Assembly (NCBI GenBank): GCA_944388965.1
Contig: CALXKL010000013.1
Location: 1 to 44,137, forward strand
Length of the DNA stretch: 44,137 nucleotides
Source: an uncultured Spirochaetales bacterium
Lineage (GTDB): Bacteria; Spirochaetota; Spirochaetia; Sphaerochaetales; Sphaerochaetaceae
Direction of reading: 5' to 3'
Shown here: positions 1-16,197 of the stretch, in pieces
Layout: every line of letters begins with the position of its first letter
How positions within the stretch are numbered: position 1 is the first letter of the stretch
Translations under genes and position numbers: made by a program
Notes under the pieces: model-generated
The model's input: the letters and a program-made list of their open reading frames with translations, nothing else
Told to the model about the DNA's origin: nothing
The model's database searches: none

Positions 1-16
1 GTAATGTCCCTCAGAA
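1..16. repeat. 16-bp direct repeat, copy A (possible recombination site)
   Basis: GTAATGTCCCTCAGAA is identical to 219-234 and is cut by the window edge, so it may be longer. On the minus strand it reads LRDIT in one frame. In the neighbouring frame it supplies the TGA stop (13-11) of the tail-fibre cassette to its right. Confidence 0.7.
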
Positions 17-235
17 TGAAATCAAAAGCGGCACAGTTGTAGCGAGTGGTCTATTTTCATTAGCTGTAGGAACAACGCATGCTGCATCAAAATAGAAACC
101 GGATCGACCATATGCGCCAGGAGCTTGAGCTGCCTGTAGACCACTTGACTGGTCAAAATCATTGAAACAGCCTGATATGTCCTGGAACACAAATGCACCA
201 GCCGCGCCTACATATCCAGTAATGTCCCTCAGAAA
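11..235 (-). pseudogene. Silent phage tail-fibre C-terminal cassette (no start of its own)
   Basis: The minus strand encodes about 74 residues, beginning FLRDITGYVGAAG inside repeat B and ending NRPLATTVPLLISF followed by TGA inside repeat A. The pattern DI(T/S)G, then GAYGRSGFYFDA, then VVPTANENRP resembles the C-terminal collar/tip segments of caudovirus tail fibres, where a YFDAs-r-VVPTA-ENRP stretch precedes the last beta strand. The upstream frame continues past 292 with no convincing start or Shine-Dalgarno site, so the segment is probably expressed only when joined to a fibre gene. It is bounded exactly by the two 16-bp repeats. The best explanation is a stored alternative tip from a shufflon; a decayed fibre gene end is the alternative. 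Recognition is by motif resemblance only. Confidence 0.5.
219..234. repeat. 16-bp direct repeat, copy B (possible recombination site)
   Basis: Identical to 1-16, 218 bp away in the same orientation. The minus strand reads F-L-R-D-I-T-G here in the frame of the tail-fibre cassette. The tail-fibre assembly gene starts 44 bp to the right on the plus strand. Confidence 0.7.
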
Positions 236-277
236 AATCGCTATGCAAGTCTCGTATCCTGTAATCAGGAGGATACC

Positions 278-832
278 ATGCTTGCATATCAATATGACCA
301 GAATGGAATCTACAGAGGAACAATCGAACGGCAGAAGAATCCATTGTCTCCGGATGACTATCTTCTACCGGCACATTCCACGCCCATAGAACCGCCTGAA
401 TGCTCATCGCCTTATCGGCCGCGATGGAACGGCACCGCCTGGGAATTGGTTGAGGACCATCGCAGATACCTTAATAGCCAGGGGCAACCGACTGGAGGTA
501 CTCCATATTGGCTTCCGGCAGAGGGAGATGACTGGAGGAGCGAGCCTAGATATATGAAAGAGCTTGGCCCGCTACCTGATGGTGCGGTGACAGAGAAGCC
601 AGAAAAACCAGAGTCCGAGATAGAGCGCGAAGAGATGATGGCGGATATCGCAGAAGCGAAGGCCTATCTCCAGCGTACAGACTATGCAGTGATAAAATGC
701 GCAGAGCAGGGGCTGGATCTCGATGAGGTCTACCCTGGGCTGAAGGAAGAAAGGCAGAGCAGACGTGACCTGATAAATCAAATCGAGGCTCAGGCTCTCT
801 CGAAAAATCTTTCCCTTGCCGCTACCATGTGA
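278..832 (+). CDS. Phage tail fibre assembly-like protein
   Basis: 184 residues. The start ATG has an AGGAGG Shine-Dalgarno site at 267-272. The N-terminal layout, Y-x-x-x-G-x-Y-R-G followed by P-L-x-P-x-x-Y-L-L-P, a Pro-rich linker and RWNGTAWELVEDHR (about residues 47-62), is typical of caudoviral tail fibre assembly/chaperone proteins. These act late in virion assembly and normally sit directly downstream of the fibre gene. The C-terminal part carries the L-x-x-T-D-Y-x-V-I-K helix followed by Y-x-x-x-x-x-x-R-Q-x-x-R, also common in these proteins. The gene follows the cassette region on the plus strand and converges with the recombinase gene, overlapping it by 11 bp. The fibre gene itself must lie left of the window. 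The family is reasonably sure; the exact subfamily is not. Confidence 0.7.
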   Translation: MLAYQYDQNGIYRGTIERQKNPLSPDDYLLPAHSTPIEPPECSSPYRPRWNGTAWELVEDHRRYLNSQGQPTGGTPYWLPAEGDDWRSEPRYMKELGPLPDGAVTEKPEKPESEIEREEMMADIAEAKAYLQRTDYAVIKCAEQGLDLDEVYPGLKEERQSRRDLINQIEAQALSKNLSLAATM

Positions 833-1601
833 CGATTCTCGAGACTCTTCTGCTGATACCCTTGCTTGTCTTGCGCAGATAGCGGACCGTCGTCTTGATA
901 TCTGCGTGACCAAGCAGATTCTGCAAGAATTTCAAATCCTTGCATCGCTCATAGACGTTCCTGGCATAGAATGCACGGAATTCATGAGGATGCATCGGCC
1001 CTATAGGGATTCCATATCGTCTGGCAAAAACATGCAGACGTTTTCTGATGACACCATCCGAGAAGGGGAGGATCAATCCATCCTCCTTGAAAGTGGACAA
1101 CACGCTCTGGCGGAGATTGGAAGGAAACCAAATTCTTCTGTATTTCGAGCCTTTTCCGCAGACGTCGACATATCCCACCTTGAGATCTTCCCGCCTGATC
1201 TGCAGGAACTCCGAGATCCTCACTCCGGTGCAGGCCAGGACCTTGATGGCCGTCCACCAGCGATATTCTCCATCATCGAGCAACCCTTTGAGAAGCCTCT
1301 GGTATTGTGACATCGTCAGCTGATGTTCAACGAAATGCTGTACCTGGATCTTGACCGGTTTCAACCTCCACCGGACCTTTGAGTATTCCGCACAGGCATT
1401 CATGGCATGCACTCGCAGATTGACTGTTGCGGGTTTTGAGCTCTGCATCGCGTTCTCTTTCCAAAGGCATGCGTCCTGGTAAGTCCATCTGTAACCGGAT
1501 CTGAAGTAGAGGTCGATAGCATTCACATAGCTCGTAATCGTGGACTTGCTTCTGCCCTTGTGCTTCAACCAAGCTCCAAATCGCCTGAGGTCGATTTCCA
1601 T
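822..1601 (-). CDS. Tyrosine recombinase (phage integrase or DNA invertase)
   Basis: 259 residues from ATG 1601, chosen because GGAGG (1609-1613) precedes it at the right spacing; an upstream ATG at 1625 has no such site. An N-terminal SAM-like core-binding domain covers about residues 1-90 and the catalytic domain the rest. All active-site residues are present: Arg128 (TGVRISEF), Lys150 (CGKGSK), His206-x-x-Arg209 (HPHEFRAFYA), His232 (LLGHADIKTT) and nucleophile Tyr241. The compact size and Xer-like C-terminus fit either a small prophage integrase or an Rci/invertase-type enzyme acting on the neighbouring tail-fibre repeats. The gene converges with the tail-fibre assembly gene. Immediately upstream lies a 285-bp tandem duplication that must hold its promoter. 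The family is certain; which DNA it recombines is inferred from position. Confidence 0.85.
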   Translation of the reverse strand: MEIDLRRFGAWLKHKGRSKSTITSYVNAIDLYFRSGYRWTYQDACLWKENAMQSSKPATVNLRVHAMNACAEYSKVRWRLKPVKIQVQHFVEHQLTMSQYQRLLKGLLDDGEYRWWTAIKVLACTGVRISEFLQIRREDLKVGYVDVCGKGSKYRRIWFPSNLRQSVLSTFKEDGLILPFSDGVIRKRLHVFARRYGIPIGPMHPHEFRAFYARNVYERCKDLKFLQNLLGHADIKTTVRYLRKTSKGISRRVSRIVTW

Positions 1602-1615
1602 TTGAATATCCTCCG

Positions 1616-1900
1616 AAACGTTCATTGAATGTTCTAGAATTCTTCAATGGGTAATCGGAGTTTTGAAGACGGATTCGACTTCTTTTGAACGCCCGTTCAA
1701 CGGAGAAGAGCTGGAAATTGTCAAAACGGCTGGAAAGTTCGCAATTTTCTCTTCAATTTGGTTCGCAATTCGCAATTTCAGGAGTACACAGGCCGTTTAT
1801 GGACTAATAAACGGGGCTAAAACGAGGGTTCTCCGCATGGATTGCGAACTGGATTGTCACAAATTCTGGACGAAACAGATTCAAACCAAATGGAATCGAC
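1616..1900. repeat. 285-bp tandem repeat, unit 1
   Basis: Read by eye, this unit is identical to 1901-2185. It starts 3 bp beyond the Shine-Dalgarno site of the recombinase and so includes that gene's presumed promoter. Inside are an inverted repeat CATTGAA-N13-TTCAATG (1623-1649), a hairpin CCGTTTAT-GGACTA-ATAAACGG (1793-1814) and several GTTCGCAATT-like short repeats. I see no convincing gene: the open plus frame exists only because 285 is a multiple of 3 and the unit is stop-free in that frame. Confidence 0.9.
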
Positions 1901-2185
1901 AAACGTTCATTGAATGTTCTAGAATTCTTCAATGGGTAATCGGAGTTTTGAAGACGGATTCGACTTCTTTTGAACGCCCGTTCAACGGAGAAGAGCTGGA
2001 AATTGTCAAAACGGCTGGAAAGTTCGCAATTTTCTCTTCAATTTGGTTCGCAATTCGCAATTTCAGGAGTACACAGGCCGTTTATGGACTAATAAACGGG
2101 GCTAAAACGAGGGTTCTCCGCATGGATTGCGAACTGGATTGTCACAAATTCTGGACGAAACAGATTCAAACCAAATGGAATCGAC
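1901..2185. repeat. 285-bp tandem repeat, unit 2
   Basis: Second perfect copy, directly abutting unit 1. The hairpin recurs at 2078-2099 and the inverted repeat at 1908-1934. Sequence beyond 2185 diverges at once. Perfect identity implies a recent duplication, recent gene conversion, or an assembly artefact at the end of a mobile element. Confidence 0.9.
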
Positions 2186-2200
2186 ATTTGAAAAACTAAG

Positions 2201-2231
2201 AGACAAGTCCTTGCATCGCAAGGACTTGTCT
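2201..2231. terminator. Strong hairpin, likely bidirectional terminator
   Basis: A perfect 14-bp stem (2201-2214 with 2218-2231) has a 3-nt loop ATC, A-rich sequence to the left (AAAAACTAAG) and TGTTAT to the right. It separates the mobile region from the mraZ operon. It could also be a recombination or attachment-site remnant. Confidence 0.6.
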
Positions 2232-2239
2232 TGTTATAC

Positions 2240-2328
2240 CCCTTATGCGCACACTTAAATTCAATTAAGTATTTCTTAATATATATGTTCATATGCGAGT
2301 CGCCTTCTCTGGATTAACCGGCCCCGAA
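2240..2328 (+). promoter_or_regulatory. AT-rich region probably carrying the mraZ operon promoter
   Basis: The stretch 2250-2295 is much more AT-rich than its surroundings. The best pair I see is TTCAAT (2260-2265), 16 bp, TATATG (2282-2287), a weak match to sigma-70. It would place transcription just upstream of the MraZ box array. The exact hexamers are uncertain. Confidence 0.35.
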
Positions 2329-2389
2329 AGTGGGGGATTTGGGGTAAGATAGTGGTAAAAAGTGGTAGAGCCTCCCAGAAAGTGGGAGA
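2329..2389 (+). promoter_or_regulatory. MraZ-type operator: GTGG repeats at helical spacing
   Basis: Repeated AGTGGGG/AGTGGTA motifs occur at 2329, about 2340 (TTGGGGTA), 2351, 2361 and 2381, at 10- or 20-bp phasing. MraZ proteins are known to autorepress their operon by binding TGGGN or GTGG direct repeats spaced about 10 bp. Position (29-90 bp upstream of the mraZ start) and spacing fit well. Confidence 0.7.
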
Positions 2390-2418
2390 TTCCGGAAAGT
2401 GCAGGAGAGTGCAGTAGG

Positions 2419-2883
2419 ATGCTGTTGACAGGCGAATACATCAACAAGGTCGATGACAAGGGCCGTCTCATGGTCCCTGCCAGACTGCGCTCTGCAATGA
2501 CGGGATCGCAGGTGGTCGCCACCAGAGGACTTGATGGATGCTGTATCGCCTTGTTTCCCCCTGAATATTTCGATAAGACCTTCTCTTTTGCAATTTCGGG
2601 CGATGACGGCATGCAGATCTTCTCACCTGCCGCGAGGATGTTCACAAGACGTTTCCTGTCTTCATCTCAGCAGTTGGACTTTGATTCCAGCGGAAGGGTG
2701 AATCTGCCGCAGTCCTTGAGGACCTATGCCGGGATTGACCTCAGAAGTGAGGTATCAATCCTCGGTATGGGCAATTACATCGAGATCTGGAACCCGGCCA
2801 AGTATGAAGAGCTCATGGCCGAGTCCGAAATGAGCATCTCCGATCTCGGGCAGCAGCTGATGAGGGAGAAGAGGGGGCAGTGA
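2419..2883 (+). CDS. mraZ: MraZ, transcriptional regulator of the division/cell-wall operon
   Basis: 154 residues from ATG 2419, which has an AGGAG site at 2403-2407; an upstream in-frame start at 2362 lies inside the operator repeats and is unlikely. The protein begins MLLTGEYINKVDDKGRLMVP and carries a second SpoVT/AbrB-like half around SSQQLDFDSSGRVNLPQSLR, the two swapped-hairpin domains of MraZ. The C-terminal Y-I-E-I-W-N-P-x-K-Y is the usual family ending. MraZ forms ring oligomers that bind the GTGG repeats in its own promoter. First gene of the dcw operon; its TGA overlaps the ATG of rsmH. Confidence 0.95.
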   Translation: MLLTGEYINKVDDKGRLMVPARLRSAMTGSQVVATRGLDGCCIALFPPEYFDKTFSFAISGDDGMQIFSPAARMFTRRFLSSSQQLDFDSSGRVNLPQSLRTYAGIDLRSEVSILGMGNYIEIWNPAKYEELMAESEMSISDLGQQLMREKRGQ

Positions 2884-3767
2884 TGGAGATAGTGCACACA
2901 CCCGTGATGAAGGATGAAGTGCTATCGTTCCTTGCTCCTGTCTCCGGTTCCCCGCTGATGATCGACTGCACCACAGGCGAAGGTGGTCATACGGAGGCCT
3001 TCCTGGAAAGGTACGACGAGCTGAAGGTCATCGGCCTGGACAGGGATGCCGCCATCCAGAGAAAGGCGGTCGAGAGACTACAGAGGTTCAAGGAGCGGTT
3101 CACTCCTGTCAACTGCTGGTTCGACGAGTATCTGAAAGGTGTGGATGACGAGTCGGCCGACATGATTCTCTTCGACCTGGGAATAAGCGTCTTCCACTAT
3201 GTGGAGTCACAGCGCGGTTTCAGCTTCAGAGGTGACGAGAAGCTGGACATGAGGCTCGATGCCGGCCAGAGGCTGTCGGCGGAGACGGTGGTGAACGAGT
3301 ATCCGGAAGATGAGCTTGCGGATCTGATCTACCACTATTCCGAGGAGCGCTACTCCAGACGCATCGCCAGAAGGATAGTGGAGGAGAGGGCGAAGGAGCG
3401 CATAGAGACGGCATCCCGGCTTGCCGAGATCGTCGCCTCGGCGGTTCCGTCCCAGTACAGGTACGGCAGGATATCTCCTGCCACGAGGACCTTCCAGGCG
3501 ATCCGCATCGAGGTCAACGGAGAACTCGAGCGGATAACGCCGGCGCTGGAGCAGGCGGTACGTGTGCTCAGGAAGGGCGGTCGCATCGCGGTGATCACCT
3601 TCCATTCCCTGGAGGACCGTCCGGTCAAGTGGTTCTTCAAGGACCTCGCCTCTCAGGGGAGGGTGAAGATCCTCACGAAGCATCCGGTGGTTGCAAGTGA
3701 GGAGGAATGCAGGGTGAACCCGCCATCTAGAAGCGCGAAGCTTAGAGTGGTGGAGAAGTGTTTTTGA
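2883..3767 (+). CDS. rsmH: 16S rRNA (cytosine1402-N4)-methyltransferase RsmH
   Basis: 294 residues from ATG 2883 (TGATG overlap with the mraZ stop; GTG 2880 is an alternative). RsmH methylates N4 of C1402 in the ribosomal P site using S-adenosylmethionine. The SAM-binding loop DCTTGEGGHTEAFL (about residues 23-36) is clear, followed by VIGLDRD and FDLGIS. The central substrate domain includes QRGFSFRGDEKLDMRLD, and the C-terminal part has the family motif RTFQAIRIEVNGEL and ITFHSLEDRPVKWFF. Second gene of the dcw operon, as in most bacteria. Confidence 0.95.
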   Translation: MEIVHTPVMKDEVLSFLAPVSGSPLMIDCTTGEGGHTEAFLERYDELKVIGLDRDAAIQRKAVERLQRFKERFTPVNCWFDEYLKGVDDESADMILFDLGISVFHYVESQRGFSFRGDEKLDMRLDAGQRLSAETVVNEYPEDELADLIYHYSEERYSRRIARRIVEERAKERIETASRLAEIVASAVPSQYRYGRISPATRTFQAIRIEVNGELERITPALEQAVRVLRKGGRIAVITFHSLEDRPVKWFFKDLASQGRVKILTKHPVVASEEECRVNPPSRSAKLRVVEKCF

Positions 3768-3778
3768 GGGATATGTAT

Positions 3779-4081
3779 ATGACAAGAGGAAGAAGATTCT
3801 CCATGACGATGACGACCAAGGCGATGGTCCTGACGGCGATTGTCTTCATCTTTCTCATGATGATGGTGCCTGTCTACCAGATCGGACAGAATCATGAGTA
3901 CCGCATAAGAATCGCGGCAAGCCAGGAGAAGATCAGACAGCTTGAGGACATCCAGCGCACGCTCGAGAGCGAGATCTCGATCGCCCGCAGTCCAGAGGCC
4001 CTGATCGACAACGTCGTCCAGCACAGTCTCGAGTACAACGAGATCGACGCATCAAGAACAGTACTTGTCGCAAAGGTGTGA
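3779..4081 (+). CDS. ftsL: FtsL-like bitopic division protein
   Basis: About 100 residues from ATG 3779, preceded by GAGGG at 3766-3770; GTG 3758 and ATG 3773 are less well placed. A short basic N-terminus (TRGRRFSMTMTTK) precedes one transmembrane segment (AMVLTAIVFIFLMMMVP) and then a coiled-coil stretch of about 35 residues (ASQEKIRQLEDIQRTLESEI). This is the FtsL/DivIC architecture; FtsL partners FtsQ and FtsB at the divisome and activates FtsWI. Sequence conservation in this family is low, so the call rests on topology and the rsmH-ftsL-murF position. Confidence 0.8.
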   Translation: MTRGRRFSMTMTTKAMVLTAIVFIFLMMMVPVYQIGQNHEYRIRIAASQEKIRQLEDIQRTLESEISIARSPEALIDNVVQHSLEYNEIDASRTVLVAKV

Positions 4082-4082
4082 C

Positions 4083-5429
4083 ATGAGGTTCACGAGCCGG
4101 CGCTTCGCCTGTCTATCCTCATCCATACATCATGGTGATGAAACCGTCATCACCGGCATCAGCTATGATTCGAGGACAGTCTCCAAAGGCTTCCTCTATA
4201 TCGCTATCAAAGGGTCAAGGGTGGATGGAAACGACTTCATCCCCGAAGCTGTCGCATCTGGCGCCTCCGCAGTCCTGGTGGACAGAGATCACGAGGCTGT
4301 TGCCTGCAGACGTTGTCTGCCATGTGGCGTCGCCGTAATCGCGGGCGACGATCCTGCCGGTGCGCTTTCGCGCTTCTCCTCGATACAGATCCTGTCGAAC
4401 AGGAAGTTCACAGGCATCGCCGTCACCGGCAGCTGCGGCAAGACCACTACAAAGGAGATGATCGCATCGATTCTCTCCACGCGCTTTCGTGTAGCCAGGA
4501 CGCCGGGCAATCTCAACAGCACGCTCGGGCTTCCACTGGCTGTGCTTACCATGGATGACGAAGCCGACTTCGGCGTATTCGAGATGGGTGTCGACCATTA
4601 CGGCGAGATGGATGCGATGACACGCATCATCCAGCCGGAGCTCGCCGTCCTGACCAATATCGGAATAAGCCATCTGGAGAACTTCGGCACCAGAGAGGGC
4701 ATCGCACGTGAGAAGGGCAGGATATTCCTTCCGCAGACACAGGGCTTCATCCTTGACGACAACGACATGAAGGAGACCCTGTATTCCATGAGTCCTGGAA
4801 TCAGAACCGTCTCCTGTCCCTTCGAAGACGTCGAGATGCTCGGTCTGGATGGAATCGCGATGAGCCTGGGTTCCAGACGTTTCGTCATGCCGACCGTCGG
4901 CATGCACAATGTCAAGGACGCATCCCTTGCAGTGGCGCTAGCTCGTCATGTCGGCATGAGGGATGATGAGATAATCGATGGCCTTTCATCCCTCAAGCCC
5001 CTGTTCGGCCGCAGTCGGGTGGTGCACCAGGGAAGCCTCACCGTCATCGAGGACTGCTACAATGCGACGCTCGACAGCGTCGACGATGCGATAAGGACCG
5101 TCAGCGGTCTGGAATGGAAGGCCGACAAGCTCATTGTCCTGGGCGACATGAGGGAGCTTGGAAGCGCATCCCGAGACGCCCACCGCCAGGTCGGGCGCAG
5201 TCTGTGCACTGCCCGGTGCGACCATATCCTCCTGTACGGTGACGAGATGGAGGAGGCATACAGGGTCCTCTACGACAGCGGAAGAAGGGACGTCGTCTAT
5301 ACCCGGCGTTTCGACGTGCTCTCGTCATCACTGAGGAAGAAGGCATCTTCAGGCGACCTCGTGCTTCTCAAGGGCTCACGTGCCATGGCAATGGAGCGGC
5401 TTTTCGAGACGCTGAAGGAGGTCGGCTGA
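4083..5429 (+). CDS. murF: UDP-N-acetylmuramoyl-tripeptide-D-alanyl-D-alanine ligase MurF
   Basis: 448 residues from ATG 4083, one base after the ftsL stop. MurF adds D-Ala-D-Ala to UDP-MurNAc-tripeptide in the last cytoplasmic precursor step. The N-terminal domain has TGISYDSRTVSKGFLYIAIKG (about 24-44). The ATP loop TGSCGKTTTKEM spans 115-126, followed by TPGNLNSTLGLPLAVL, the Mur-ligase central H-x-E-N-F region (ISHLENFGTREGIAREK) and the C-terminal domain with DCYNATLDSVDDAI and VLGDMRELG. MurE, MurD, MurC and Ddl, which often flank MurF in dcw clusters, are not in this window. Confidence 0.95.
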   Translation: MRFTSRRFACLSSSIHHGDETVITGISYDSRTVSKGFLYIAIKGSRVDGNDFIPEAVASGASAVLVDRDHEAVACRRCLPCGVAVIAGDDPAGALSRFSSIQILSNRKFTGIAVTGSCGKTTTKEMIASILSTRFRVARTPGNLNSTLGLPLAVLTMDDEADFGVFEMGVDHYGEMDAMTRIIQPELAVLTNIGISHLENFGTREGIAREKGRIFLPQTQGFILDDNDMKETLYSMSPGIRTVSCPFEDVEMLGLDGIAMSLGSRRFVMPTVGMHNVKDASLAVALARHVGMRDDEIIDGLSSLKPLFGRSRVVHQGSLTVIEDCYNATLDSVDDAIRTVSGLEWKADKLIVLGDMRELGSASRDAHRQVGRSLCTARCDHILLYGDEMEEAYRVLYDSGRRDVVYTRRFDVLSSSLRKKASSGDLVLLKGSRAMAMERLFETLKEVG

Positions 5430-5432
5430 CCA

Positions 5433-6317
5433 ATGCCCTATGTAATCGCGTTCATCCTTGCACTTGCAACAACCCCTGCCATCGCCAAGATGGCAGGCGG
5501 TTTCAATTCGCCGATCAAGGACGAGCTCATGGTCACACAGAGCGGCAAGGCCGGCACCTGCTCGCTTGGATCGGTCGCAATCGTCCTGTCGACAGGCGTC
5601 GCCGCACTGGTGTCGGGGGATGTAGAGGCAATACGTCTCGTTGCACTGGCGATTCCCTTCTTCCTCATCGGCCTTGCCGACGACATCATGAAGATTGTCC
5701 ATGACAGTGGAGACGGCTTCCCGAGCCTGGTGAAGCTGGCACTGCAGCTGGTCGCATGTGCACTCGATGCTTACATCGTGAAGGGCATCGCCTTCCAGAC
5801 GACGGATGTGCTCGTGTATTACCCGTGCGCAATCCTCTTCATCGCGACCACCGTGAACGCGCTCAATATAACCGACGGTCTTGACGGACTGGCCACGAAG
5901 GTCTCGATGCCTCCCGTCCTGCTCGCTGCGATTGCACTTCCTTCGCTCAGAAGCGGGAATCTCATACTGCTGATGGTCCTTGCCGGGTACCTCGTGTACA
6001 ACACGGGCAGAGCAAGCATCTTCATGGGGGACGGAGGCAGCCATTTCATCGGAGCGTTCCTGGCAATGGATGCGCTCTTGTCGCTTCATCCAGTCGCAAT
6101 CGCGTTCTCGGCCGCAGTGATCTATGTGGAGCTTCTCTCGTCGTTCATCCAGATCGTGTCGATCAGATGCTTCTCGCGCAAGGTGTTCCTGATCGCGCCG
6201 CTCCATCATGACTTCGAGCAGAGGGGATACGCCGAAGGCAAGATAGTCGACACCTTCTTCTCCGTCACTGTATTCACCTCGCTTGTTTCTGCTATAGTCT
6301 TCTTCAGGGTGGTGTGA
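5433..6317 (+). CDS. mraY: Phospho-N-acetylmuramoyl-pentapeptide-transferase MraY
   Basis: 294 residues; AAGGAGG (5416-5422) lies upstream of ATG 5433. MraY transfers phospho-MurNAc-pentapeptide to undecaprenyl phosphate, making lipid I at the inner membrane. About ten hydrophobic segments are visible. Catalytic motifs are Asp83-Asp84 (GLADDIMK), NITDGLDGLA (145-154), MGDGGSHFIGAF with Asp200, and PLHHDFEQRGYAE (257-268). The last motif has HHD where most MraY proteins have HHH. The protein is shorter than the usual 320-360 residues, mostly through a shorter N-terminus. Three bases separate it from murF and one from ftsW. Confidence 0.93.
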   Translation: MPYVIAFILALATTPAIAKMAGGFNSPIKDELMVTQSGKAGTCSLGSVAIVLSTGVAALVSGDVEAIRLVALAIPFFLIGLADDIMKIVHDSGDGFPSLVKLALQLVACALDAYIVKGIAFQTTDVLVYYPCAILFIATTVNALNITDGLDGLATKVSMPPVLLAAIALPSLRSGNLILLMVLAGYLVYNTGRASIFMGDGGSHFIGAFLAMDALLSLHPVAIAFSAAVIYVELLSSFIQIVSIRCFSRKVFLIAPLHHDFEQRGYAEGKIVDTFFSVTVFTSLVSAIVFFRVV

Positions 6318-6318
6318 A

Positions 6319-7494
6319 ATGGCGCAGCGGGACTACAGCGACTACTACAACAGCCTTGAAGGAGAGATCGATTCCGGCTCCTCCGGGTCTCTCGCCCCCT
6401 TCACGTTCATATGCGTGGTCGTGATCCTTGTCATGACGGGTCTTGTCATGCTCTACAGTTCGAGCTACGCCGAGGCGACGATGAACGGACTGGACCACTA
6501 CTACTATGTGCTGCGTCAGGGCATCTTCGCGATTCTGGGCTTCGTGTGTGCAATCGTCATCAACCTCGTACCCGTAAAGTGGATAAGACTAGCTGCGATT
6601 CCGCTTGTGGTCATCGCCCTCGTCTCCATGCTTATGACTCTATTCACCCCCTATGGCGTGACCGTCATGGGGGCACGCCGCTGGCTGGCCCTTCCGCTCG
6701 TGCCGCAGTTCCAGCCAAGCGAGGTTGTCAAGCTTTCGACGATTGTGTTCCTTGCCTGGTGGCTTACCAGCCCCTCGACGAGGAGATACCTGGGATGGTA
6801 CTACGTCGTACCGTTCATAATGATTGTCGGCTTCACGCTTCTGATCGTGGTGCAGCGGGCCTACACGACGAGCATTCACTACCTCATACTGGCCCTTGCC
6901 ATCTGTGTCGCCGCAAGGCTGAAGCTCAGATACATCTTCATCGCCTGTGCATTCATCAGCGTACCCGGCATTCTCTATATGCTCAGCGAAAGCTACAGGG
7001 TGAAGAGGATTGCAAGCTTCGTCTTTCCATCTCTGGATCCGCAGGGGCTGAACTGGCAGGTGAACATGTCGCTCGGTGCGATCGCGGAGGGAGGGCTTAC
7101 CGGAAAGGGAATAGGAAATGGCACATACAAGCTCGGTCTTCTTCCCGAGGTCCAGAACGACTTCATCCTCTCGTCGATCATAGAGGAGACGGGACTGGTC
7201 GGTTTTGCATTCATCGCGATGATGTTCATCATGTTCGCGATTCTCGGCTACAGGGCTTCCGTGCGGCTCTGGCCAAGGGACAGGTTCCATGCTCTGCTTT
7301 CGGTCGGCATAACGACTATGATCATCAGTCAGGTGGCTCTGAACATAGCGGTCATAACAGGCCTTCTGCCTCCTACGGGAATACCTCTGCCTTTCTTCAG
7401 CCAAGGCGGCACGAACCTCTTCGTCATCATTGTCGAGTGCGGACTGCTGTACAGGGCGATCGTCCTGTCGTCCAAGGAGGGAGGCGATGAGTGA
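6319..7494 (+). CDS. ftsW: FtsW, SEDS-family septal peptidoglycan glycosyltransferase
   Basis: 391 residues with about ten membrane segments. FtsW polymerises lipid II at the septum together with the transpeptidase FtsI. Diagnostic stretches are GARRWLALP-x-x-P-x-F-QPSEVVKLS (about 113-139), the large extracytoplasmic loop with LPEVQNDFILSSIIEETGLVG holding the catalytic-type Asp of NDFI, and the terminal GLLPPTGIPLPFFSQGG. A hydrophilic N-terminus of about 27 residues precedes the first helix. The start is one base after mraY; the 3' end overlaps ftsQ by 8 bp. FtsW is favoured over RodA by the dcw context. Confidence 0.93.
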   Translation: MAQRDYSDYYNSLEGEIDSGSSGSLAPFTFICVVVILVMTGLVMLYSSSYAEATMNGLDHYYYVLRQGIFAILGFVCAIVINLVPVKWIRLAAIPLVVIALVSMLMTLFTPYGVTVMGARRWLALPLVPQFQPSEVVKLSTIVFLAWWLTSPSTRRYLGWYYVVPFIMIVGFTLLIVVQRAYTTSIHYLILALAICVAARLKLRYIFIACAFISVPGILYMLSESYRVKRIASFVFPSLDPQGLNWQVNMSLGAIAEGGLTGKGIGNGTYKLGLLPEVQNDFILSSIIEETGLVGFAFIAMMFIMFAILGYRASVRLWPRDRFHALLSVGITTMIISQVALNIAVITGLLPPTGIPLPFFSQGGTNLFVIIVECGLLYRAIVLSSKEGGDE

Positions 7495-8254
7495 GAGGAG
7501 GGTCTATCTTTCCATCGTCGTCCTGATTGGCCTGGCACTCGTCGTGGTGACGGTCTCATACGCACTGCGCTACATGGACGCGTTCGCCGTGGACAGGATA
7601 ACGGTCGTCGGCATGGAGCGCATCCCCGACAGCGTCAGCCGTATCCTGGCCGCCTGCTATGGAGTCAACCGCTTCCGTCTGGATGTGGACGCTCTGGTCT
7701 CCTCGGTCGAGGAGAACCCTCTTGTCGACCAGTGCATCGTATCATGGTCGCTTCCGGCCCATATGGAGGTCACTCTGATTCCAAGCGACGAGAAGTGTCT
7801 GCTGTACGACGGCGAGAAATACTATCTCATGGACGAAGGAAGGCCCGTCGCCCTCTCTGGCGAGGACAGTGCCGCATACGCGGCGGAGATGTGCACCGTG
7901 GATGTCTCGACAAGCCTGATCGGGTACATGCAACGCTACTCGTCTCCGTCGTCTTTCGACCAGGTCCTTGACCTCATCGAACGGGTCAACGAAACCAGCA
8001 GCTGGTTGATAACGCGGATAAAATACGATAATAATACAACAAGCGGATTCGGACAGATCGTCCTTACGCTCGAGCCCCTGAACTCTCGACTCTACGTGCG
8101 TGAACGCGTTTCCGCCCAGCGCATCGGGGACAGCATCAGGGTGATACAGGCCAGCATCGAAGACGATCCTGCCGGCGCCTTGAGAATCGGCATGAGACGG
8201 TGGGACCTGTACAGCGACGCGCTTGTCAGAAGGGATGTGGAGAAAGATGGCTAG
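7487..8254 (+). CDS. ftsQ: FtsQ/DivIB-like cell division protein
   Basis: 255 residues from ATG 7487, with AAGGAGGGAGG just upstream and 8 bp of overlap with ftsW. A short N-terminus is followed by one transmembrane helix (VYLSIVVLIGLALVVVTVSY) and a POTRA-like domain: FAVDRITVVGMERIPDSV, then NRFRLDVDALVSSVEENPLVDQCIVSWSLP, where the L-V-x-x-x-x-V-x-W-x-x-P-x-x-x-x-V-x-L pattern is typical. FtsQ links FtsL/FtsB to the divisome. Called from topology, the POTRA pattern and position between ftsW and ftsA; overall sequence is divergent. Confidence 0.85.
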   Translation: MSERRVYLSIVVLIGLALVVVTVSYALRYMDAFAVDRITVVGMERIPDSVSRILAACYGVNRFRLDVDALVSSVEENPLVDQCIVSWSLPAHMEVTLIPSDEKCLLYDGEKYYLMDEGRPVALSGEDSAAYAAEMCTVDVSTSLIGYMQRYSSPSSFDQVLDLIERVNETSSWLITRIKYDNNTTSGFGQIVLTLEPLNSRLYVRERVSAQRIGDSIRVIQASIEDDPAGALRIGMRRWDLYSDALVRRDVEKDG

Positions 8255-9482
8255 TGACAGGATAATGATGGGACTTGATATAGGGTCGAGCTGGACGCGG
8301 GCCGTGATCGGATCCGTCAACAGGGAAGGGGCCCTCATGGTCGACGCCCTGTGCGAGAAGCAGACCGAAGGCGTACGCTCCGGTTCCATCGTCAACATCG
8401 AGCAGACCCTCAGGACCATCAACTCGGTGATCTCCGATGCCGAGCTGCAGGCCGGATGCGAGATCCATTCCGCCATCCTCGGAGTGGGCGGCGACCATAT
8501 CCAGGGCATCCAGAGCACCGGCGTCGTCGGAATCAACTCCAAGGAGCAGGAGATCAAGAGGGAGGACATCTACCGTTCGCTGGATGTCGCCCGGGCCAGG
8601 GAGCTTCCCCAGGACAGGGAGTTCCTCCACACGCTCGTCCAGGACTTCCAAGTTGACTCAAGGACAGGTATCAAGGATCCGATCGACATGCTCGGACACA
8701 GACTTGAAAGCCGTGTGCTCCTCGTGACCGGATCATCCTCCATCTGCCAGAACCAGCGCAAGTGCGTCCAGAAGGCCGGACTCCAGGTCCAGCGCATGAT
8801 GCTCCAGACGGTTGCGGACTGCGAGGTCGTCCTGTCTCTCGAGGAGAAGGAGATGGGCACCATCCTGATCAACATCGGCTACGGGACGACCAACATGATC
8901 GCCTATAGCCAGGGAAGCCCGATCTACACCGGCGGCGTCGCCTTCGGAGGCGACAGCATAACAAACGACCTGGCCTACATCCTCAACAAGCCCAAGCAGG
9001 TCGCGGAGCAGATCAAGTGCGAGAGCGGAAGCTGCTATGTACCCAGCGTCCCGTCATCCGACATGATCCTCATACCACAGGTGGGAGGCATGCCCAGCAT
9101 AAGGATGCCGCGCCGTTCCCTGTGCGAGATCATAGAGCCGCGCATGGCCGAGATCTTCACGCTCCTTGCCATGGAGCTCGAGAAGGTCGAGCACCAGGGC
9201 TCGTTCGGAGGCGGAGTCGTGCTCGTCGGAGGCGGTTCGCTGCTTTCCGGAGTCACGGAGCTTGCAAGCGAGATCTTCAAGCTTCCTGCACGCATCGGCT
9301 TCCCCGAGGCCCTTCCCGGACTCGACAGGAGCTATATAAACCCGAAATACACCACTGTCCTCGGTCTGCTCAAGAGCGAGGCCAAGAAGATAGCCACATC
9401 CTCTTCCTCGAGTGGCCGGAGCGAGAGGGAGAAGTCTTCCCTGGGCGGCAGGCTCAAGGGGTTCTTCGGCAAGCTGTTTTAG
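8247..9482 (+). CDS. ftsA: Cell division protein FtsA
   Basis: 411 residues from ATG 8247, overlapping the ftsQ stop by 8 bp. FtsA is the actin-like ATPase that anchors FtsZ to the membrane. Visible motifs are the phosphate-1 loop MMGLDIGSSWTRAVIG, the inserted 1C/SHS2 segment (HSAILGVGGDHIQGIQSTG), phosphate-2 ILINIGYGTTNMIAY, and the adenosine motif GVVLVGGGSLLSGV. The last residues GGRLKGFFGKLF form the expected amphipathic membrane-targeting helix. FtsZ follows 12 bp later. Confidence 0.95.
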   Translation: MASDRIMMGLDIGSSWTRAVIGSVNREGALMVDALCEKQTEGVRSGSIVNIEQTLRTINSVISDAELQAGCEIHSAILGVGGDHIQGIQSTGVVGINSKEQEIKREDIYRSLDVARARELPQDREFLHTLVQDFQVDSRTGIKDPIDMLGHRLESRVLLVTGSSSICQNQRKCVQKAGLQVQRMMLQTVADCEVVLSLEEKEMGTILINIGYGTTNMIAYSQGSPIYTGGVAFGGDSITNDLAYILNKPKQVAEQIKCESGSCYVPSVPSSDMILIPQVGGMPSIRMPRRSLCEIIEPRMAEIFTLLAMELEKVEHQGSFGGGVVLVGGGSLLSGVTELASEIFKLPARIGFPEALPGLDRSYINPKYTTVLGLLKSEAKKIATSSSSSGRSEREKSSLGGRLKGFFGKLF

Positions 9483-9494
9483 GAGATGAGACGT

Positions 9495-10793
9495 ATGGGA
9501 TTCGGAATTTTCGACATTGAAGACACGACGACAGGAGAGCAGGCAACCCCGACGATCATAAAGGTCGTAGGCGTCGGCGGTGCCGGCGGGAACGCGGTCA
9601 ACAGGATGATCGCATCCGGACTCAAGAAGGTTTCCTTCGTCGCTCTGAACACAGACGTCCAGGCCCTTCAGCGCTCCAATGCACAGACCAGGATAGCGAT
9701 CGGCAAGGAGCTGACCGGCGGTCTCGGTGCAGGTGGACAGCCCGAGATCGGAGAGAAGGCTGCGCTCGAGAGCAAAGAGGAGATCAAGGCGGAGCTGGAG
9801 AACACCGACATGGTCTTCATCACCGCAGGAATGGGTGGTGGAACCGGAACCGGTGCCGCAGCCGTGGTTGCGGAGATCGCCAAGAGCTGCAACGCGCTCA
9901 CCGTCGCCGTCGTCACCACGCCGTTCGCCTTCGAGGGCAAGAAGAAGTTCGAGCTTGCGCAGCAGGGTATCGAGAGACTCCGCAAGCAGGTCGACACCCT
10001 CATCCTGATCCCGAACCAGTACCTTCTGAAGGTCGTCGAGAACAACACCCCGATCAAGCAGGCGTTCCTCATCGCCGACGACGTGCTCTACCAGGGCGTC
10101 CAGGGCATAAGCGAGCTCATCACCGAACCCGGTGAGATCAACATCGACTTCGCCGACGTCAAGACCGTCATGAAGGGCAAGGGAGATGCCTTGATGGGTA
10201 TCGGCTTCGGCGAAGGAGCCAACAGGGCGGTTGATGCGGCCAAGGAGGCCATCAGCAACCCGCTTCTCGAAAACGCTTCGATTGACGGAGCCAAGAGCGT
10301 CCTGGTCAATCTTGCAGGAAGCGACAACCTGACACTACAGGAGTACCAGGACGTCGTCGAGCTCATCACGGCAAACTGCGCCGAGGATGCGCTGATCATC
10401 GCCGGTCAGGCGTTCAACCCCGAACTGGGCGACAGGATCAAGGTCACCGTAGTCGCCACCGGCTTCCAGAACAAGGCCGAGGTCACCGGCGGAGAGGTCG
10501 ACAGCGAGTCCGCTCTCAGGCGCTTCGTCAATCCGGAGCCTCGCCAGGAGAGCCCGCTTCACCAGATGCAGAGCCAGCATCAGGCCGCTACTGCCGCTGC
10601 ACAGCCCAGCGCTCCACAACAGCCTGCCGCCCCCTCCAGACCGGCTCCCACGGATGCCGACGCAATCACCGTGAACCGCTGGCAGGACCTTCAGCAGCAG
10701 CTTGGCAAGAGAAGCCAGAGCAACGACTACTCCATTCCTGCGGTCATGCGCTACCGTCAGGGAGAGGAAGATGAAGGCAAGGACAGAAGGTGA
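9495..10793 (+). CDS. ftsZ: Cell division GTPase FtsZ
   Basis: 432 residues from ATG 9495; AGGAG (9481-9485) is well spaced for this start but would touch the alternative ATG at 9486. FtsZ polymerises into the Z ring. Motifs: VVGVGGAGGNAVNRM, the tubulin signature GMGGGTGTGAA, the synergy/T7 loop INIDFADVKTVM and VVATGF near the end of the core. A Gln/Pro/Ala-rich linker of about 60 residues follows (around QHQAATAAAQPSAPQQPAAP). The conserved FtsA-binding tail YSIPAVMRYR ends the protein. The 3' end overlaps the next gene by 23 bp. Confidence 0.97.
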   Translation: MGFGIFDIEDTTTGEQATPTIIKVVGVGGAGGNAVNRMIASGLKKVSFVALNTDVQALQRSNAQTRIAIGKELTGGLGAGGQPEIGEKAALESKEEIKAELENTDMVFITAGMGGGTGTGAAAVVAEIAKSCNALTVAVVTTPFAFEGKKKFELAQQGIERLRKQVDTLILIPNQYLLKVVENNTPIKQAFLIADDVLYQGVQGISELITEPGEINIDFADVKTVMKGKGDALMGIGFGEGANRAVDAAKEAISNPLLENASIDGAKSVLVNLAGSDNLTLQEYQDVVELITANCAEDALIIAGQAFNPELGDRIKVTVVATGFQNKAEVTGGEVDSESALRRFVNPEPRQESPLHQMQSQHQAATAAAQPSAPQQPAAPSRPAPTDADAITVNRWQDLQQQLGKRSQSNDYSIPAVMRYRQGEEDEGKDRR

Positions 10794-11742
10794 GTCCGGC
10801 CTCGATGCCGAACTGCTGAGAAACTACGAGGACTATCTCGAGAACGAAGCCCAGCTTTCCAAGGGGACCCGCGAGGTCTATCTCAGGGAGGCGGGCTTCC
10901 TGCTTTCCCATCTTCGAAGTGCCGGTCTCGATATATCCACGATCTCCCTTGCAGATCTGGATTCCTATCTTCAGAACCGTGATGCTTCTCTCGACGCACG
11001 TACCGTGTCACGCATCAACTCATCTCTCAGAAGCCTGTTCACCTATCTGGTCAAGGATGGAATCCGCAAGGACAACATCGCCCTGCTGTTGGAGAAGCCG
11101 AAGATGGACGAGTATCTGCCTCATGCCCTGTCCATCGATGAGGTTGACTCCATCCTGGACGAGATGAAGAGACAGGCTGATGAAGACATCCTCTTCGTGC
11201 GCGACTATACGTTCTTCGAGCTCATTTACTCCTGTGGACTCAGGATAAGCGAGGCCGTGAACCTCAAGGTCTCGTCCTACAACAGGGATGAGCGCACTCT
11301 GATAGTCTTCGGAAAGAGAAGCAAGGAGCGGCTGGTGTTCGTCGGCCAGATCGCCTCCGACGCGCTTGACAGGTATCTGGCTGAAGTGAGACCCGTTCTG
11401 GCCTCGGCCAACAGGAGGAGGGCCAGAAGGACCGCAAAGGACCGTGACAGCACCGATGCCATGTTCCTCGGCAGAAGAGGTGAGAGCCTCACCCGCCAGG
11501 CAATGCACAAGCGTTACCACAGGATCGTCGAGAGCCTGGGCATAGACGCCACGGTGCATGCCCTGAGGCACAGCTATGCCACACATCTTCTCAAAGGCGG
11601 TGCGAACATCCGCCAGGTGCAGATGCTGCTCGGCCATGCCGATATAAAGACCACGCAGATATACACGCATCTGGATACGGACGACCTTCTTGCCACATTC
11701 GACAAGTACTTCCCGCTCAGCAAGTATGACGCTTCACGTTGA
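10771..11742 (+). CDS. xerD: Tyrosine recombinase, XerD-like
   Basis: 323 residues from ATG 10771, inside the last 23 bp of ftsZ. The N-terminal core-binding domain (about 10-105) and catalytic domain are complete: Arg158 (SCGLRISEA), Lys182, His263-x-x-Arg266 (HALRHSYATHLL), His289 (LLGHADIKTTQIYTH) and Tyr298. XerC and XerD act together at dif to resolve chromosome dimers during division, which fits placement beside ftsZ. A basic insertion of about 15 residues (ANRRRARRTAKDRD) precedes MFLGRRG and is unusual. The XerD assignment is by elimination, because the second Xer gene (16952) has the XerC ending and codV-hslVU context; a private function is possible. Confidence 0.8.
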   Translation: MKARTEGESGLDAELLRNYEDYLENEAQLSKGTREVYLREAGFLLSHLRSAGLDISTISLADLDSYLQNRDASLDARTVSRINSSLRSLFTYLVKDGIRKDNIALLLEKPKMDEYLPHALSIDEVDSILDEMKRQADEDILFVRDYTFFELIYSCGLRISEAVNLKVSSYNRDERTLIVFGKRSKERLVFVGQIASDALDRYLAEVRPVLASANRRRARRTAKDRDSTDAMFLGRRGESLTRQAMHKRYHRIVESLGIDATVHALRHSYATHLLKGGANIRQVQMLLGHADIKTTQIYTHLDTDDLLATFDKYFPLSKYDASR

Positions 11743-11769
11743 AAAGGCCCTTTCACTCAGTTGAAAATG

Positions 11770-11797
11770 ATTCGAGGCGGGAAATCCCGCCTCGAAT
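11770..11797. terminator. Hairpin terminator between convergent genes
   Basis: A 13-bp GC-rich stem (11770-11782 with 11785-11797) with a two-base gap that would open to an AAAT-type loop. It lies between the ends of the xerD-like gene and the giant lipoprotein gene. Read on the minus strand it is followed by TCATTTTC, so it best serves the lipoprotein transcript. Confidence 0.65.
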
Positions 11798-11825
11798 GGA
11801 AAGGAACCAAAAGAATTTGTCTGTT

Positions 11826-14800
11826 TCAGCCTCCTACCTTCTTCCAGGTACCATCTGACCATATTCCACCAGAAATCGATTCTGTTGTCATGCTGTACTC
11901 AATGTCAAAATAGTACTTTTCCCCATCGACTATCACAGGACCGAGAAGTGACATGGAATCATAAGTTGCACAATACCTCAAGCCAGGCGAGCTGACAGAA
12001 TATGTCTCACCTGTTTCATTTGAAATCATCGAACAATTTAACATTGAGATGACGAAATCGATAGTCTTTTCTGAGTAACTAAGACTGGAAGCATTGAAGT
12101 AGGCATCAGTGAAATCGACCTTAATGTCTTTTCCAAGACTTTGTACTCCAAGATCAGGAGATTCGATGATTGACATGGATACATACATCGAGAACATTCC
12201 AAAAATCTGTTCTGCGATCATTCTCATCTCATTTGTCACGGCTATCTCGTTGATTCCGTCGAATGTAATATCACTGACTTGAGAAGATGCGGTCTGTCTG
12301 ATATTGACTGTATAGATATAATCATCAAGCAGATATTTGATTTTTCCATCTACATTTTCGAAAGAAGGCGAAGATAGACTGCTTCCAGAAAGAAGTGTTG
12401 CTTGGCTAGGTGTTCCATACTCATCATAGATAGGAATATCGATTCCTGTATTACCCACCGTTTCAGGATAAGATGCTTCGAAGCTCATGGCATCTCCGTC
12501 AATACTGATGATGAACGGTCCAACTTCCATGTTAGTGCAGTTGTTGTTGTAGATAACACCAACCATAGGAATCTGAGTGATATTCTCACTGACAGCCGAG
12601 TACACTTTCATCAGATTATCATCTACATAGTCCGTCATTGACTCCGGAGCATGTACTACAGGCTCCACAGGTGCACTGAGTTCGGTGTAGTCGGGAATAA
12701 GCGGTGTGTCAGGATATTCTCCAGTCGATACAGTGAAGTCGATGTTCTGTGTCTCTCCATCAGAAGTCAAGTAGTAGACATGGATTCCGTTTTCAATCCG
12801 ATCGATCTCGTATTCGATGGTGAATCCATTGAGCGGATTTTCAAGAGATGCTTCCCACCATCCTTCATTGATGCTTCCTCTCTGGCTGACGATGTCGCAG
12901 TTGCCATACAGCTCGAAGAAACTCATGGAACCCATTCCGGGAACATTCAGGATGAAGTCCGACGAGCTGATATCAAGAGTGACGGGTCCACTGTATTCTC
13001 CATATACGATGTCGCCTTCATATTGGCCATGCATCCAGTCAAGGAATACCAGGAAATCTGTTCCAAGGTCATATGGGTCAGATTCAGCTTCCTCGGAACA
13101 GTCAACTCCGTTCAGACTAGCTTCTAAGTATGACGGAGTTATCTTCCAGTATATCGAGAAGACGTTGCCTTCCGCATCCCGAACAATCAAATCAATCTCA
13201 TTGTTCATCATATCGGAAGTCATTTGGATTCTTCCCCAGATGGTATAACCGTTTTCACCCTGGTATCCTGTCATGTCATATATGGTCAAGGAATCTATTT
13301 GACTTGTTTCGACTCCAGGAGCTGTGCTATCTGGCAAATCAGGCATTGATTCCATCAACACTGTAGTGATGAATTCAAATTTGTCCTGAGACGTCGATCC
13401 ACCGAAGTCGGGATTGTCAGCGGTGTTCACCTGCGGAGCTTCTGAAATACTTTCGATGATGAGTTCAACGTCATTGAAGTAATAGGTCTCTCCTTGTCTT
13501 CTTATCTTGAACGCCTGTTCTGAACTGTTCTGGACCGTCAATTCGAATCCATTTTCGTTGGCATTGCCCCAGAACATGTATTCACTGCTGGTGTATCCTT
13601 TGTAGGTGATTTCTCCATTGGCGTTCCTGACAAACGACTGATCAAGATTGACCATGTCGCCACCTTGGATTTCATAAAGTCTCTCTGGTTCTATAATCGA
13701 TTTGACAAGAGAATTGATGAATTCAATCTTCGTTTCCGCCGTCTCACCGGCTTCTTCGATTTCAACGAGCTCTGTCGGTGCTTCAGAAGTCGTTGCTGCG
13801 ACTATGCTGATTGTACCAATATCTCCTTTCCAGGACTCATCATTGTATGCGATGCTCCATGTAATAGGAATGCTCTCGCCCGCCTCGATTCCAGCAAGAA
13901 GGAGCCTGTCTCCATCAAGAAGATCCCAACTGTTTCCGTTAACGAGGAAAGTGAACTCGGCATCCTGCGGTGCTCCGATGCTGATGTCTTTAATCGCAAG
14001 ATATGCGTTTTGTGGAAGCTCTGTATCTTCAATGGATGCAGACACAGTAGGGGAGACAGTTATTTTGGAAGAATACTCTGCACTGACACCGTTTTTGCTT
14101 GCGGTGACTGCAACAGGGATGTCTGATCCGATTTCATTGGCGGTGTATGTATTTCTTTCGATATCGGCTCCAGCGACATTCCATGTGAATTCAGTTCCTG
14201 CAGGGAACTCTCCTGTGATTGAGAATGTCAGCTGTTCGTCGTATGAAGCAGATGCGTTAGGCGTAACAGAAATCGTGACTGAATCCCGGCTGGGCATCGT
14301 GACAGACGAATTGACAGTCAATTCGACGGATTCGCTCCAGATGACACTCGCGTTCGAAACGAACAGTGTAAGGCGCAACTTGCTGCCTGCAAGCGCTGTT
14401 CCATCCAGTTCGTAGATCAGAGTGTCGTCAGTAGCTGTGCTTTCTATCTTTTTGGCGTCCAGTGTCCAGGTGAGAACAGGATCGGCAATACCGCTGATAT
14501 GAGGAACCGCGACGATTGTGCCATTCGATGCAATCTCTGCGCCGGAAGACAGATTGATTTCTATTGTCGGGGTGACGATGATTTCGTTAACAATAGTGAC
14601 TGCAAGGCTTTCTCCACTGTATGCTGCATTGTACTGGGTCGTGATTCCAGCATAGATGCGAACCGAATCATCGTGTGCTATCTCATTGTCACCGGATGTG
14701 ATGACGATTCTGTATGTTCCATTATCCAGAAAAATGTCGCCGATGAACTTGTTGCTTTCCTCATCTCTTTCAAGGGTGATCGTATGAATCGGAGTGGGCG

Positions 14801-15284: not shown

Positions 15285-15421
15285 AATTTCCCTCCTTTTT
15301 ATGTAGATAGTGTGAAGTTGGTGGCTCCACAGGTCAACATTTTAGGGTGTCGTCATTTTGAAAATTGAGAACAAATGTCATTTTTGTAATTTCTGCCACG
15401 GATAGATGCTTTTCCCTTGAC

Positions 15422-15429
15422 GGGGGGGG
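15422..15429 (+). repeat. Intergenic G8 tract next to a TTGAC element
   Basis: Eight G directly after TTGAC (15417-15421), about 100 bp upstream of the small lipoprotein and 138 bp upstream of the giant one. Length changes here would alter promoter spacing rather than a reading frame. Confidence 0.75.
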
Positions 15430-15480
15430 TAATGGGATACCCTCATGTCGAGAGGGAAACAGATAGCTGATGAACCATCT

Positions 15481-15522
15481 CCCTCTCTGCATCCTTGGAT
15501 GCAAGAACAACAGAAGAGAGGG
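15481..15522 (+). promoter_or_regulatory. 5' leader hairpin that can cover the Shine-Dalgarno site
   Basis: CCCTCTCT (15481-15488) is perfectly complementary to AGAGAGGG (15515-15522), which contains the best-spaced Shine-Dalgarno sequence (GAGGG, 8 nt before ATG 15531). A small inner stem GCATCC/GGATGC (15489-15502) stacks inside. Confidence 0.45.
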
Positions 15523-15530
15523 AAAGAAGG

Positions 15531-16055: not shown

Positions 16056-16091
16056 GCTGTTGTCAATCTGACATTTTGCAATGAATCACCT

Positions 16092-16124
16092 GGCGTGGGC
16101 CGACGACCCACGCCTTCTTCTTTT
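16092..16124 (+). terminator. Rho-independent terminator after the small lipoprotein
   Basis: Perfect 8-bp stem GGCGTGGG/CCCACGCC (16092-16099 with 16107-16114), 7-nt loop, then TTCTTCTTTT. Confidence 0.85.
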
Positions 16125-16162
16125 GTGAACCTTGATGCCATATTTCCTTGTCAGATGGTGCA

Positions 16163-16191
16163 TTAGCCAAAACCTCATGTTCCTGTATATG
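16163..16191 (+). promoter_or_regulatory. Candidate promoter immediately before dprA
   Basis: TTAGCC (16163-16168), 17 bp, TATATG (16186-16191), then only 6 nt to ATG 16198. No Shine-Dalgarno site is present. This suggests a leaderless mRNA. Confidence 0.4.
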
Positions 16192-16197
16192 TCTTGC

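What the first reader, a model, noticed from the sequence alone, without database searches (positions are those of the whole stretch)
1..1601. Possible tail-fibre shufflon: cassette between direct repeats next to a tyrosine recombinase
A start-less tail-fibre C-terminal cassette on the minus strand (11-235) is bounded by two identical 16-bp repeats. The repeat does double duty: one frame enters the next cassette (LRDIT) and the other frame supplies the stop (TGA) of the preceding one. A tail-fibre assembly gene on the opposite strand and a complete Rci-like tyrosine recombinase follow. This is what one expects at the edge of a multi-cassette system that swaps phage receptor-binding tips. The repeats in view are direct, so inverted copies would have to lie to the left.
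Basis: partly seen in the sequence, partly recalled or inferred. Interest (0 to 1): 0.75.

Follow-up and report, generated by a model that had tools for sequence, protein, structure and literature searches.

The report
Edge of a phage tail-tip shufflon
The start of this contig is one end of a prophage gene array that lets a tailed phage of an uncultured spirochaete swap the tips of its host-binding tail fibre; a sister array in the same genome carries 21 interchangeable tips, and the assembly holds junctions of two of its arrangements at once.

Summary
Two exact 16-bp repeats (1-16, 219-234) bound a start-less, tail-fibre-like cassette. A Tfa-like gene (278-832, +) and an intact XerC/D-like tyrosine recombinase (822-1625, -) follow. 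The contig ends at base 1, so this array cannot be followed further, but the rest of the genome and its relatives explain it. A paralogous recombinase on contig C3 borders 21 cassettes of 67-85 codons, separated by TGAGGCATTW sites in both orientations. The constant fibre gene lies at the end of contig C5, fused in frame to one cassette. C3 and C5 end in 77-nt assembly overlaps exactly at sites, implying two arrangements that differ by one inversion. C13 (the window) also starts exactly at a site. Relatives carry complete loci: constant collar-domain fibre, 7-12 cassettes, often a tfa gene inside the array, and a recombinase whose stop codon abuts a site. In relative G005 a transposase gene was recombined exactly at a chance copy of the core. 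The window cassette is silent: its upstream half-site is antisense to the tfa leader. This is a shufflon of the Rin kind known from Bifidobacterium and Eggerthella prophages, unusually large and in a spirochaete: a new variant of a known kind.

The parts
1..16 (-). Recombination site (TTCTGAGGGACATTAC on the minus strand) closing the cassette; supplies its TGA stop. The contig begins exactly at its boundary
   Evidence: branch signature
11..235 (-). Silent tail-fibre C-terminal cassette (F-LRDITG...VVPTANENRPLATTVPLLISF*), no start codon of its own
   Evidence: shares the D-I-T-G start and the F-x-S/A-x-x-V-V-P-x-x-x-E-x-x-P end with cassettes of relatives
219..234 (-). Recombination site at the entry of the cassette; its upstream half is antisense to the tfa leader, so no fibre gene feeds it here
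   Evidence: same layout at L093:6673 and L094:1685
278..832 (+). Tail-fibre assembly (Tfa-like) gene; relatives carry it inside the array in either orientation
   Evidence: phrog_105, E 9e-10; 39-47% identity to tfa genes inside arrays of G072, G110, G082, G075
822..1625 (-). XerC/D-like tyrosine recombinase, 267 aa, intact catalytic residues; predicted shufflon invertase

Best explanation
The feature is one end of a prophage-borne tail-fibre shufflon. A constant fibre gene with a collar domain ends at a half-site that reads R-D/G-I. Beyond it lie promoterless, start-less cassettes of about 70 codons in both orientations, each beginning with the other half of the site (DITG/GITG) and ending with its stop codon inside the next site. 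The neighbouring XerC/D-like tyrosine recombinase inverts DNA between oppositely oriented sites, so a different cassette becomes the 3' end of the fibre gene and the phage displays a different tip. In the window we see the recombinase, a Tfa-like gene and the last, silent cassette; the fibre gene and the rest of the array lie beyond the contig end. Shown: the anatomy, the in-frame constant-variable fusion in the sister array, the coexistence of alternative junctions in one assembly, and a past crossover inside the core (split IS). Inferred: that this recombinase acts on these sites, that inversion is preferred over excision, and that the tips set host range.
For: Same genome: C3 holds a 73-75% identical recombinase beside 21 cassettes, 5 in one orientation and 16 in the other. 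C5 begins with the constant fibre reading ...KGQLDAQ-RGI-RGLLHGT..., an in-frame fusion to the cassette at C3 3111-2885. C5:1-77 equals C3:3043-3119, and C3:1-77 is the reverse complement of C3:3112-3188. Other contig ends of this assembly overlap by exactly 77 nt, so junctions fibre|3111, 78|3112 and 3111|3112 were all assembled. Relatives: complete loci in G005, G110, G075 and G072. In 12 loci besides the window the recombinase ends in a Trp codon plus stop flush with a site, against 1 of 37 more distant viral relatives, that one a chance palindrome. In G005 an IS transposase is split at GAGACATT; a 97-98% identical intact copy sits on another contig. Cassettes vary (mean identity 25%) between a fixed start and end. 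Their profile matches a solved short tail fibre, 9cuy (E 1.6e-4), and a relative's fibre matches the P1/P7 fibre S, including P7's invertible C segment.
Against: In the window itself only two sites, both in the same orientation, and one cassette are visible, and the fibre gene of this array was not found in the assembly. The fourth junction expected from the C3 inversion (fibre|78) is not among the contigs, so the alternative junctions could in principle come from duplicated cassettes or from two strains. No reads were available. The window recombinase is not flush with a site, unlike its relatives, so this array may be partly degraded.
Confidence: 0.88

Rival explanations
1. The window end is a decayed remnant: the array left of base 1 is gone or frozen, and only an orphan cassette, a tfa gene and a recombinase remain beside mraZ.
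For: Only two sites are in the assembly. The recombinase-side site found in relatives is missing and tfa abuts the recombinase tail to tail. The congener G015 keeps only a recombinase relic with 2 TGA stops at this place.
Against: The recombinase and cassette frames are intact, the two 16-bp sites are identical, and the contig breaks exactly at a site, the same signature as the sister array.
Confidence: 0.1
2. Integron-like cassette array: the recombinase mainly excises and re-inserts cassettes as circles between direct sites rather than inverting segments.
For: Long head-to-tail runs of promoterless cassettes next to a tyrosine recombinase. The IS-split arrangement in G005 could also arise by excision of four cassettes as a circle and re-insertion.
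Against: The alternative junctions in G000 fit one inversion; sites occur in both orientations in every complete locus; runs of 16 direct sites persist; two inversions also explain the G005 arrangement.
Confidence: 0.07
3. Ordinary repeated tail-fibre domains or gene duplicates, with a phage integrase next door and no programmed recombination.
For: Cassettes are homologous domains; tyrosine recombinases are common in prophages (general knowledge).
Against: The identity is concentrated in short sites that carry stop and entry codons, cassettes lie in both orientations without starts, G072 has a separate integrase (419 aa), an IS was cut exactly at the core, and contig ends fall in register with sites in three genomes.
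Confidence: 0.02

Closest known systems
Rin shufflon of Bifidobacterium prophages (PMC6109161), also reported in Eggerthella lenta prophages (PMC8778435)
   Same: Phage-borne; XerD-like tyrosine recombinase without arm domain at one end; constant receptor-binding-protein N-terminus at the other; small variable C-terminal cassettes separated by short asymmetric sites (11 bp there); inversion swaps the C-terminus.
   Different: Spirochaete host; 21 cassettes in one array against 5; fibres are P1/Mu S-like collar fibres instead of TP901-1-like RBPs; the site lies in the RDITG codons and supplies the stop of the previous cassette; the recombinase stop abuts a site; a tfa gene often sits inside the array. 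Homology of the two recombinases was not tested.
R64 shufflon with Rci (PilV tips of IncI plasmids)
   Same: Tyrosine recombinase, multiple inversions, alternative C-termini of an adhesin tip.
   Different: Plasmid pilus rather than phage fibre; from general knowledge 19-bp sites and 7 C-termini. The recombinase here gave XerA/XerC as best profiles.
Gin/Cin/Min inversion of Mu, P1/P7 and p15B tail fibres
   Same: Same target: the 3' end of an S-type fibre gene with partner tfa. A relative's fibre (G072) matches P1/P7 S over its shared part.
   Different: Those use serine recombinases and few segments; here a tyrosine recombinase and many single cassettes.
Integron gene cassettes
   Same: Array of promoterless cassettes beside a tyrosine recombinase; weak match to the integron integrase profile.
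   Different: Sites of about 9-13 bp in both orientations; cassettes are C-terminal segments rather than whole genes; the evidence points to inversion.

Membership tests
Rin-type phage tyrosine-recombinase shufflon | Tyrosine recombinase without arm-type domain next to the array | tested here: met
   267 aa, catalytic residues present, XerC/D-like profiles
Rin-type phage tyrosine-recombinase shufflon | Constant fibre or RBP N-terminus fused in frame to one variable cassette | tested here: met
   Met in the sister array C5/C3 and in G072 L093; not visible in the window
Rin-type phage tyrosine-recombinase shufflon | Several C-terminal cassettes separated by short asymmetric sites in both orientations | tested here: met
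   Met in C3, G005, G072, G110, G082, G075; the window shows one cassette and two direct sites only
Rin-type phage tyrosine-recombinase shufflon | Alternative arrangements in one population | tested here: met
   By assembly junctions only: three junctions that cannot share one non-duplicated molecule. No reads; shown for the sister array, not for the window
Rin-type phage tyrosine-recombinase shufflon | Recombinase homologous to Rin | not tested
   The Rin sequence was not retrieved
R64 shufflon / Rci | Recombinase of the Rci subfamily acting on 19-bp sfx sites | tested here: inconclusive
   Best NCBIfam profiles are XerA and XerC below cut-off; no direct comparison with Rci
Gin/Cin/Min serine invertase systems | Serine recombinase | tested here: not met
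   The enzyme is a tyrosine recombinase
Integron | attC-type palindromic sites and excision/insertion of free cassettes | tested here: inconclusive
   Sites are short and asymmetric; excision was neither shown nor excluded

The most novel reading that the evidence does not exclude
A family of very large phage tail-tip shufflons in this spirochaete family. The recombination site is embedded in the fibre's RDITG codons and doubles as stop signal for every cassette, for the recombinase and in places for the tfa gene, so that tips, and the fibre chaperone with them, can be dealt among more than 20 states without ever breaking a reading frame.
Probability: 0.6. Interest if true: 0.65.

Novelty: new variant of a known kind. 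Interest (0 to 1): 0.55.

Why it matters
It extends tyrosine-recombinase tail-fibre shufflons, reported in prophages of Bifidobacterium and Eggerthella, to prophages of uncultured spirochaetes. It shows an array of 21 alternative tips, several times larger than the five of Rin. Natural variation in cassette, site and recombinase, including an IS cut at a chance site, defines a minimal core (GAGACATT or GAGGCATT) that can be tested directly. Such arrays also break short-read assemblies, so they are probably under-counted.

Tried and rejected
Extending C13 leftwards: impossible, it is a contig end, and no other copy of the 16-mer is in the assembly. A fibre gene for the window's own array: not found; the only close fibre is C5's, which joins the C3 array. 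C12 carries a Mu-like module whose last genes resemble those of G005's mraZ prophage, so it may be the other side, but this is unproven. An AlphaFold model of the cassette had mean pLDDT 51 and was not searched. The first viral-contig scan found no relative; a wider alignment found 58 loci, of which the 37 examined showed distant recombinases without flush sites. I first thought a single tail-to-tail centre was a rule for all arrays; G110, G072, G075 and G082 have two, separated by tfa, so I dropped it. I considered that the conserved final Trp of the recombinase came from the site; distant relatives without sites share it, so it does not. G097's contig end near its recombinase lies 98 nt from the site, not 77, so I do not count it.

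Full report
**What was claimed and what is there.** The window is contig C13 of a 17-contig, 2.1-Mb assembly, from its first base. The exact 16-mer GTAATGTCCCTCAGAA stands at 1-16 and 219-234 and nowhere else in the assembly. Between them the minus strand encodes a start-less cassette, FLRDITG...VVPTANENRPLATTVPLLISF*, whose stop TGA lies in the left repeat and whose entry codons lie in the right repeat in another frame. A Tfa-like gene (278-832, +) and an intact tyrosine recombinase (822-1625, -) follow, then mraZ and cell-division genes (gene names from the translations).

**The same genome holds a complete sister system.** A recombinase 73-75% identical to the window's lies at C3:4948-5703. 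Left of it, C3:69-4940 holds 21 cassettes of 67-85 codons, five reading right and sixteen reading left. They are separated by TGAGGCATTW, a site that gives the stop of one cassette and the GI(T/S)G start of the next. The constant part of the fibre is the first gene of contig C5: a collar-domain protein (PF07484) ending KGQLDAQ-RGI and running in frame into the cassette at C3 3111-2885. Upstream of it on C5 are tail, tape-measure, major head and portal genes, so this is a prophage.

**Evidence that the array moves.** Contig ends of this assembly overlap by exactly 77 nt again and again, so the assembler's word was 77. C5:1-77 equals C3:3043-3119 up to the end of the shared core, and C3:1-77 is the reverse complement of C3:3112-3188. 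The assembly therefore contains three junctions: fibre|3111, 78|3112 and 3111|3112. The first two belong to an arrangement in which C3:78-3111 is inverted; the third belongs to the uninverted one. They cannot all lie in one molecule unless cassettes are duplicated. The partner junction fibre|78 was not assembled, which is the main gap. C13 begins exactly at the site boundary, the same sign of a branch.

Other genomes repeat it. G072:C6 and G093:C24 end exactly 77 nt beyond the first shared base of a site, and the last 77 nt of G072:C6 are the terminal 77 nt of G072:C18, which carries more cassettes.

**A natural experiment.** The relative G005 (an uncultured Spirochaetales MAG) has the homologous locus at the same place beside mraZ: recombinase, array, fibre ending KLDAQ-RDI, and tail genes. 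Its array contains a transposase gene in two pieces. One piece reads GAACTTGATGAGACATT then a cassette. The other follows the fibre's GCGCAAAGAGACATT with TGTCGAGTCC. An intact copy, 97-98% identical, on another contig reads GAACTTGATGAGACATTTGTCGAGTCC. The element was thus recombined exactly within the eight bases GAGACATT that its coding sequence happens to share with the site. Two inversions, or one excision and re-insertion, would explain the present order (inference).

**Family-wide anatomy.** Of 139 genomes of the family, 15 carry a close recombinase, in two genera. Complete or partial arrays occur in G072, G110, G075, G082, G070, G030, G084 and G093. Sites are GAGACATTA, GGGACATT, GGAACATTA, or, in another tail-fibre type (EGYVTLP), GAGGGGTA and relatives. 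In twelve loci the recombinase ends in Trp-stop flush with a site. Among 37 distant viral recombinases only one had a nearby repeated word, a chance palindrome, although nearly all share the final Trp. So the flush site is specific to these arrays. In G072, G110, G082 and G075 a tfa gene 39-47% identical to the window's sits inside the array between outward-pointing sites, in either orientation. The window matches this: the upstream half of its 219-234 site is the antisense of the tfa leader. Its cassette is therefore silent in the assembled state. The block expected between tfa and recombinase is missing in the window, so this array may be somewhat reduced.

**What the cassettes encode.** Thirty-three cassettes from C3, G005 and the window average 25% identity, with a fixed start (D/G-I-T/S-G) and fixed end (F-x-S-S-x-V-V-P-x-x-x-E-x-x-P...L-L-R-I) around a hypervariable middle. 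Their profile matches the solved short tail fibre 9cuy (E 1.6e-4). The full fibre of G072 matches the shared part of the P1 and P7 fibre S, in P7 including the start of the segment annotated as invertible. A role as receptor-binding tips follows from these relatives; host range was not tested.

**Place among known systems.** The closest described system is the Rin shufflon of Bifidobacterium prophages: an armless tyrosine recombinase, a constant RBP N-terminus, five variable C-termini of 95-100 residues, and 11-bp sites, with read evidence of inversion (PMC6109161); it was also reported in Eggerthella lenta prophages (PMC8778435). The present system works the same way. It differs in host phylum, size, fibre family, the embedding of stop and entry codons in the site, the recombinase-flush site and the tfa island. 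Homology of the recombinases to Rin was not tested. The serine-invertase systems Gin, Cin and Min act on the same kind of fibre but with another enzyme.

Noticed in passing
window 1616-2186: Perfect 285-bp tandem duplication (2.0 copies, 100% match) between the recombinase start and mraZ; because 285 is a multiple of three, an open frame (1663-2199, +) runs through both copies.
   Followed up: partly
L016 12437-14498 (G005:C1): Transposase gene split into two pieces at GAGACATT inside its coding sequence by the array's recombination; intact copy at G005:C9 (L029).
   Followed up: yes
L017 11489-12109 (G015:C19): Recombinase relic with two in-frame TGA stops at the same chromosomal place beside mraZ, without array.
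   Followed up: partly
L020 (G059) 6237-13161: A 36% identical recombinase sits among type I restriction specificity-like genes with short repeats in both orientations, i.e. the same enzyme family probably shuffles hsdS there.
   Followed up: no
L018, L099, L101, L102, L103: A second class of arrays with another tail-fibre type (cassettes of L103 start EGYVTLP..., end WIAIG) and sites such as GTAGCGGTTA or GAGGGGTA, also flush with the recombinase stop.
   Followed up: partly
L066 (G000:C12) 1-17000: Mu-like prophage structural module (Mu portal, Mu F-like) whose last genes resemble those of the G005 mraZ prophage and which ends inside a repetitive fibre-associated gene; perhaps the other side of the window's prophage.
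   Followed up: partly
L093 7279-7926 (G072:C31): Recombinase gene truncated (ORF of 215 aa, C-terminal part out of frame) beside an otherwise intact array, while the same genome has an intact recombinase on C6.
   Followed up: no
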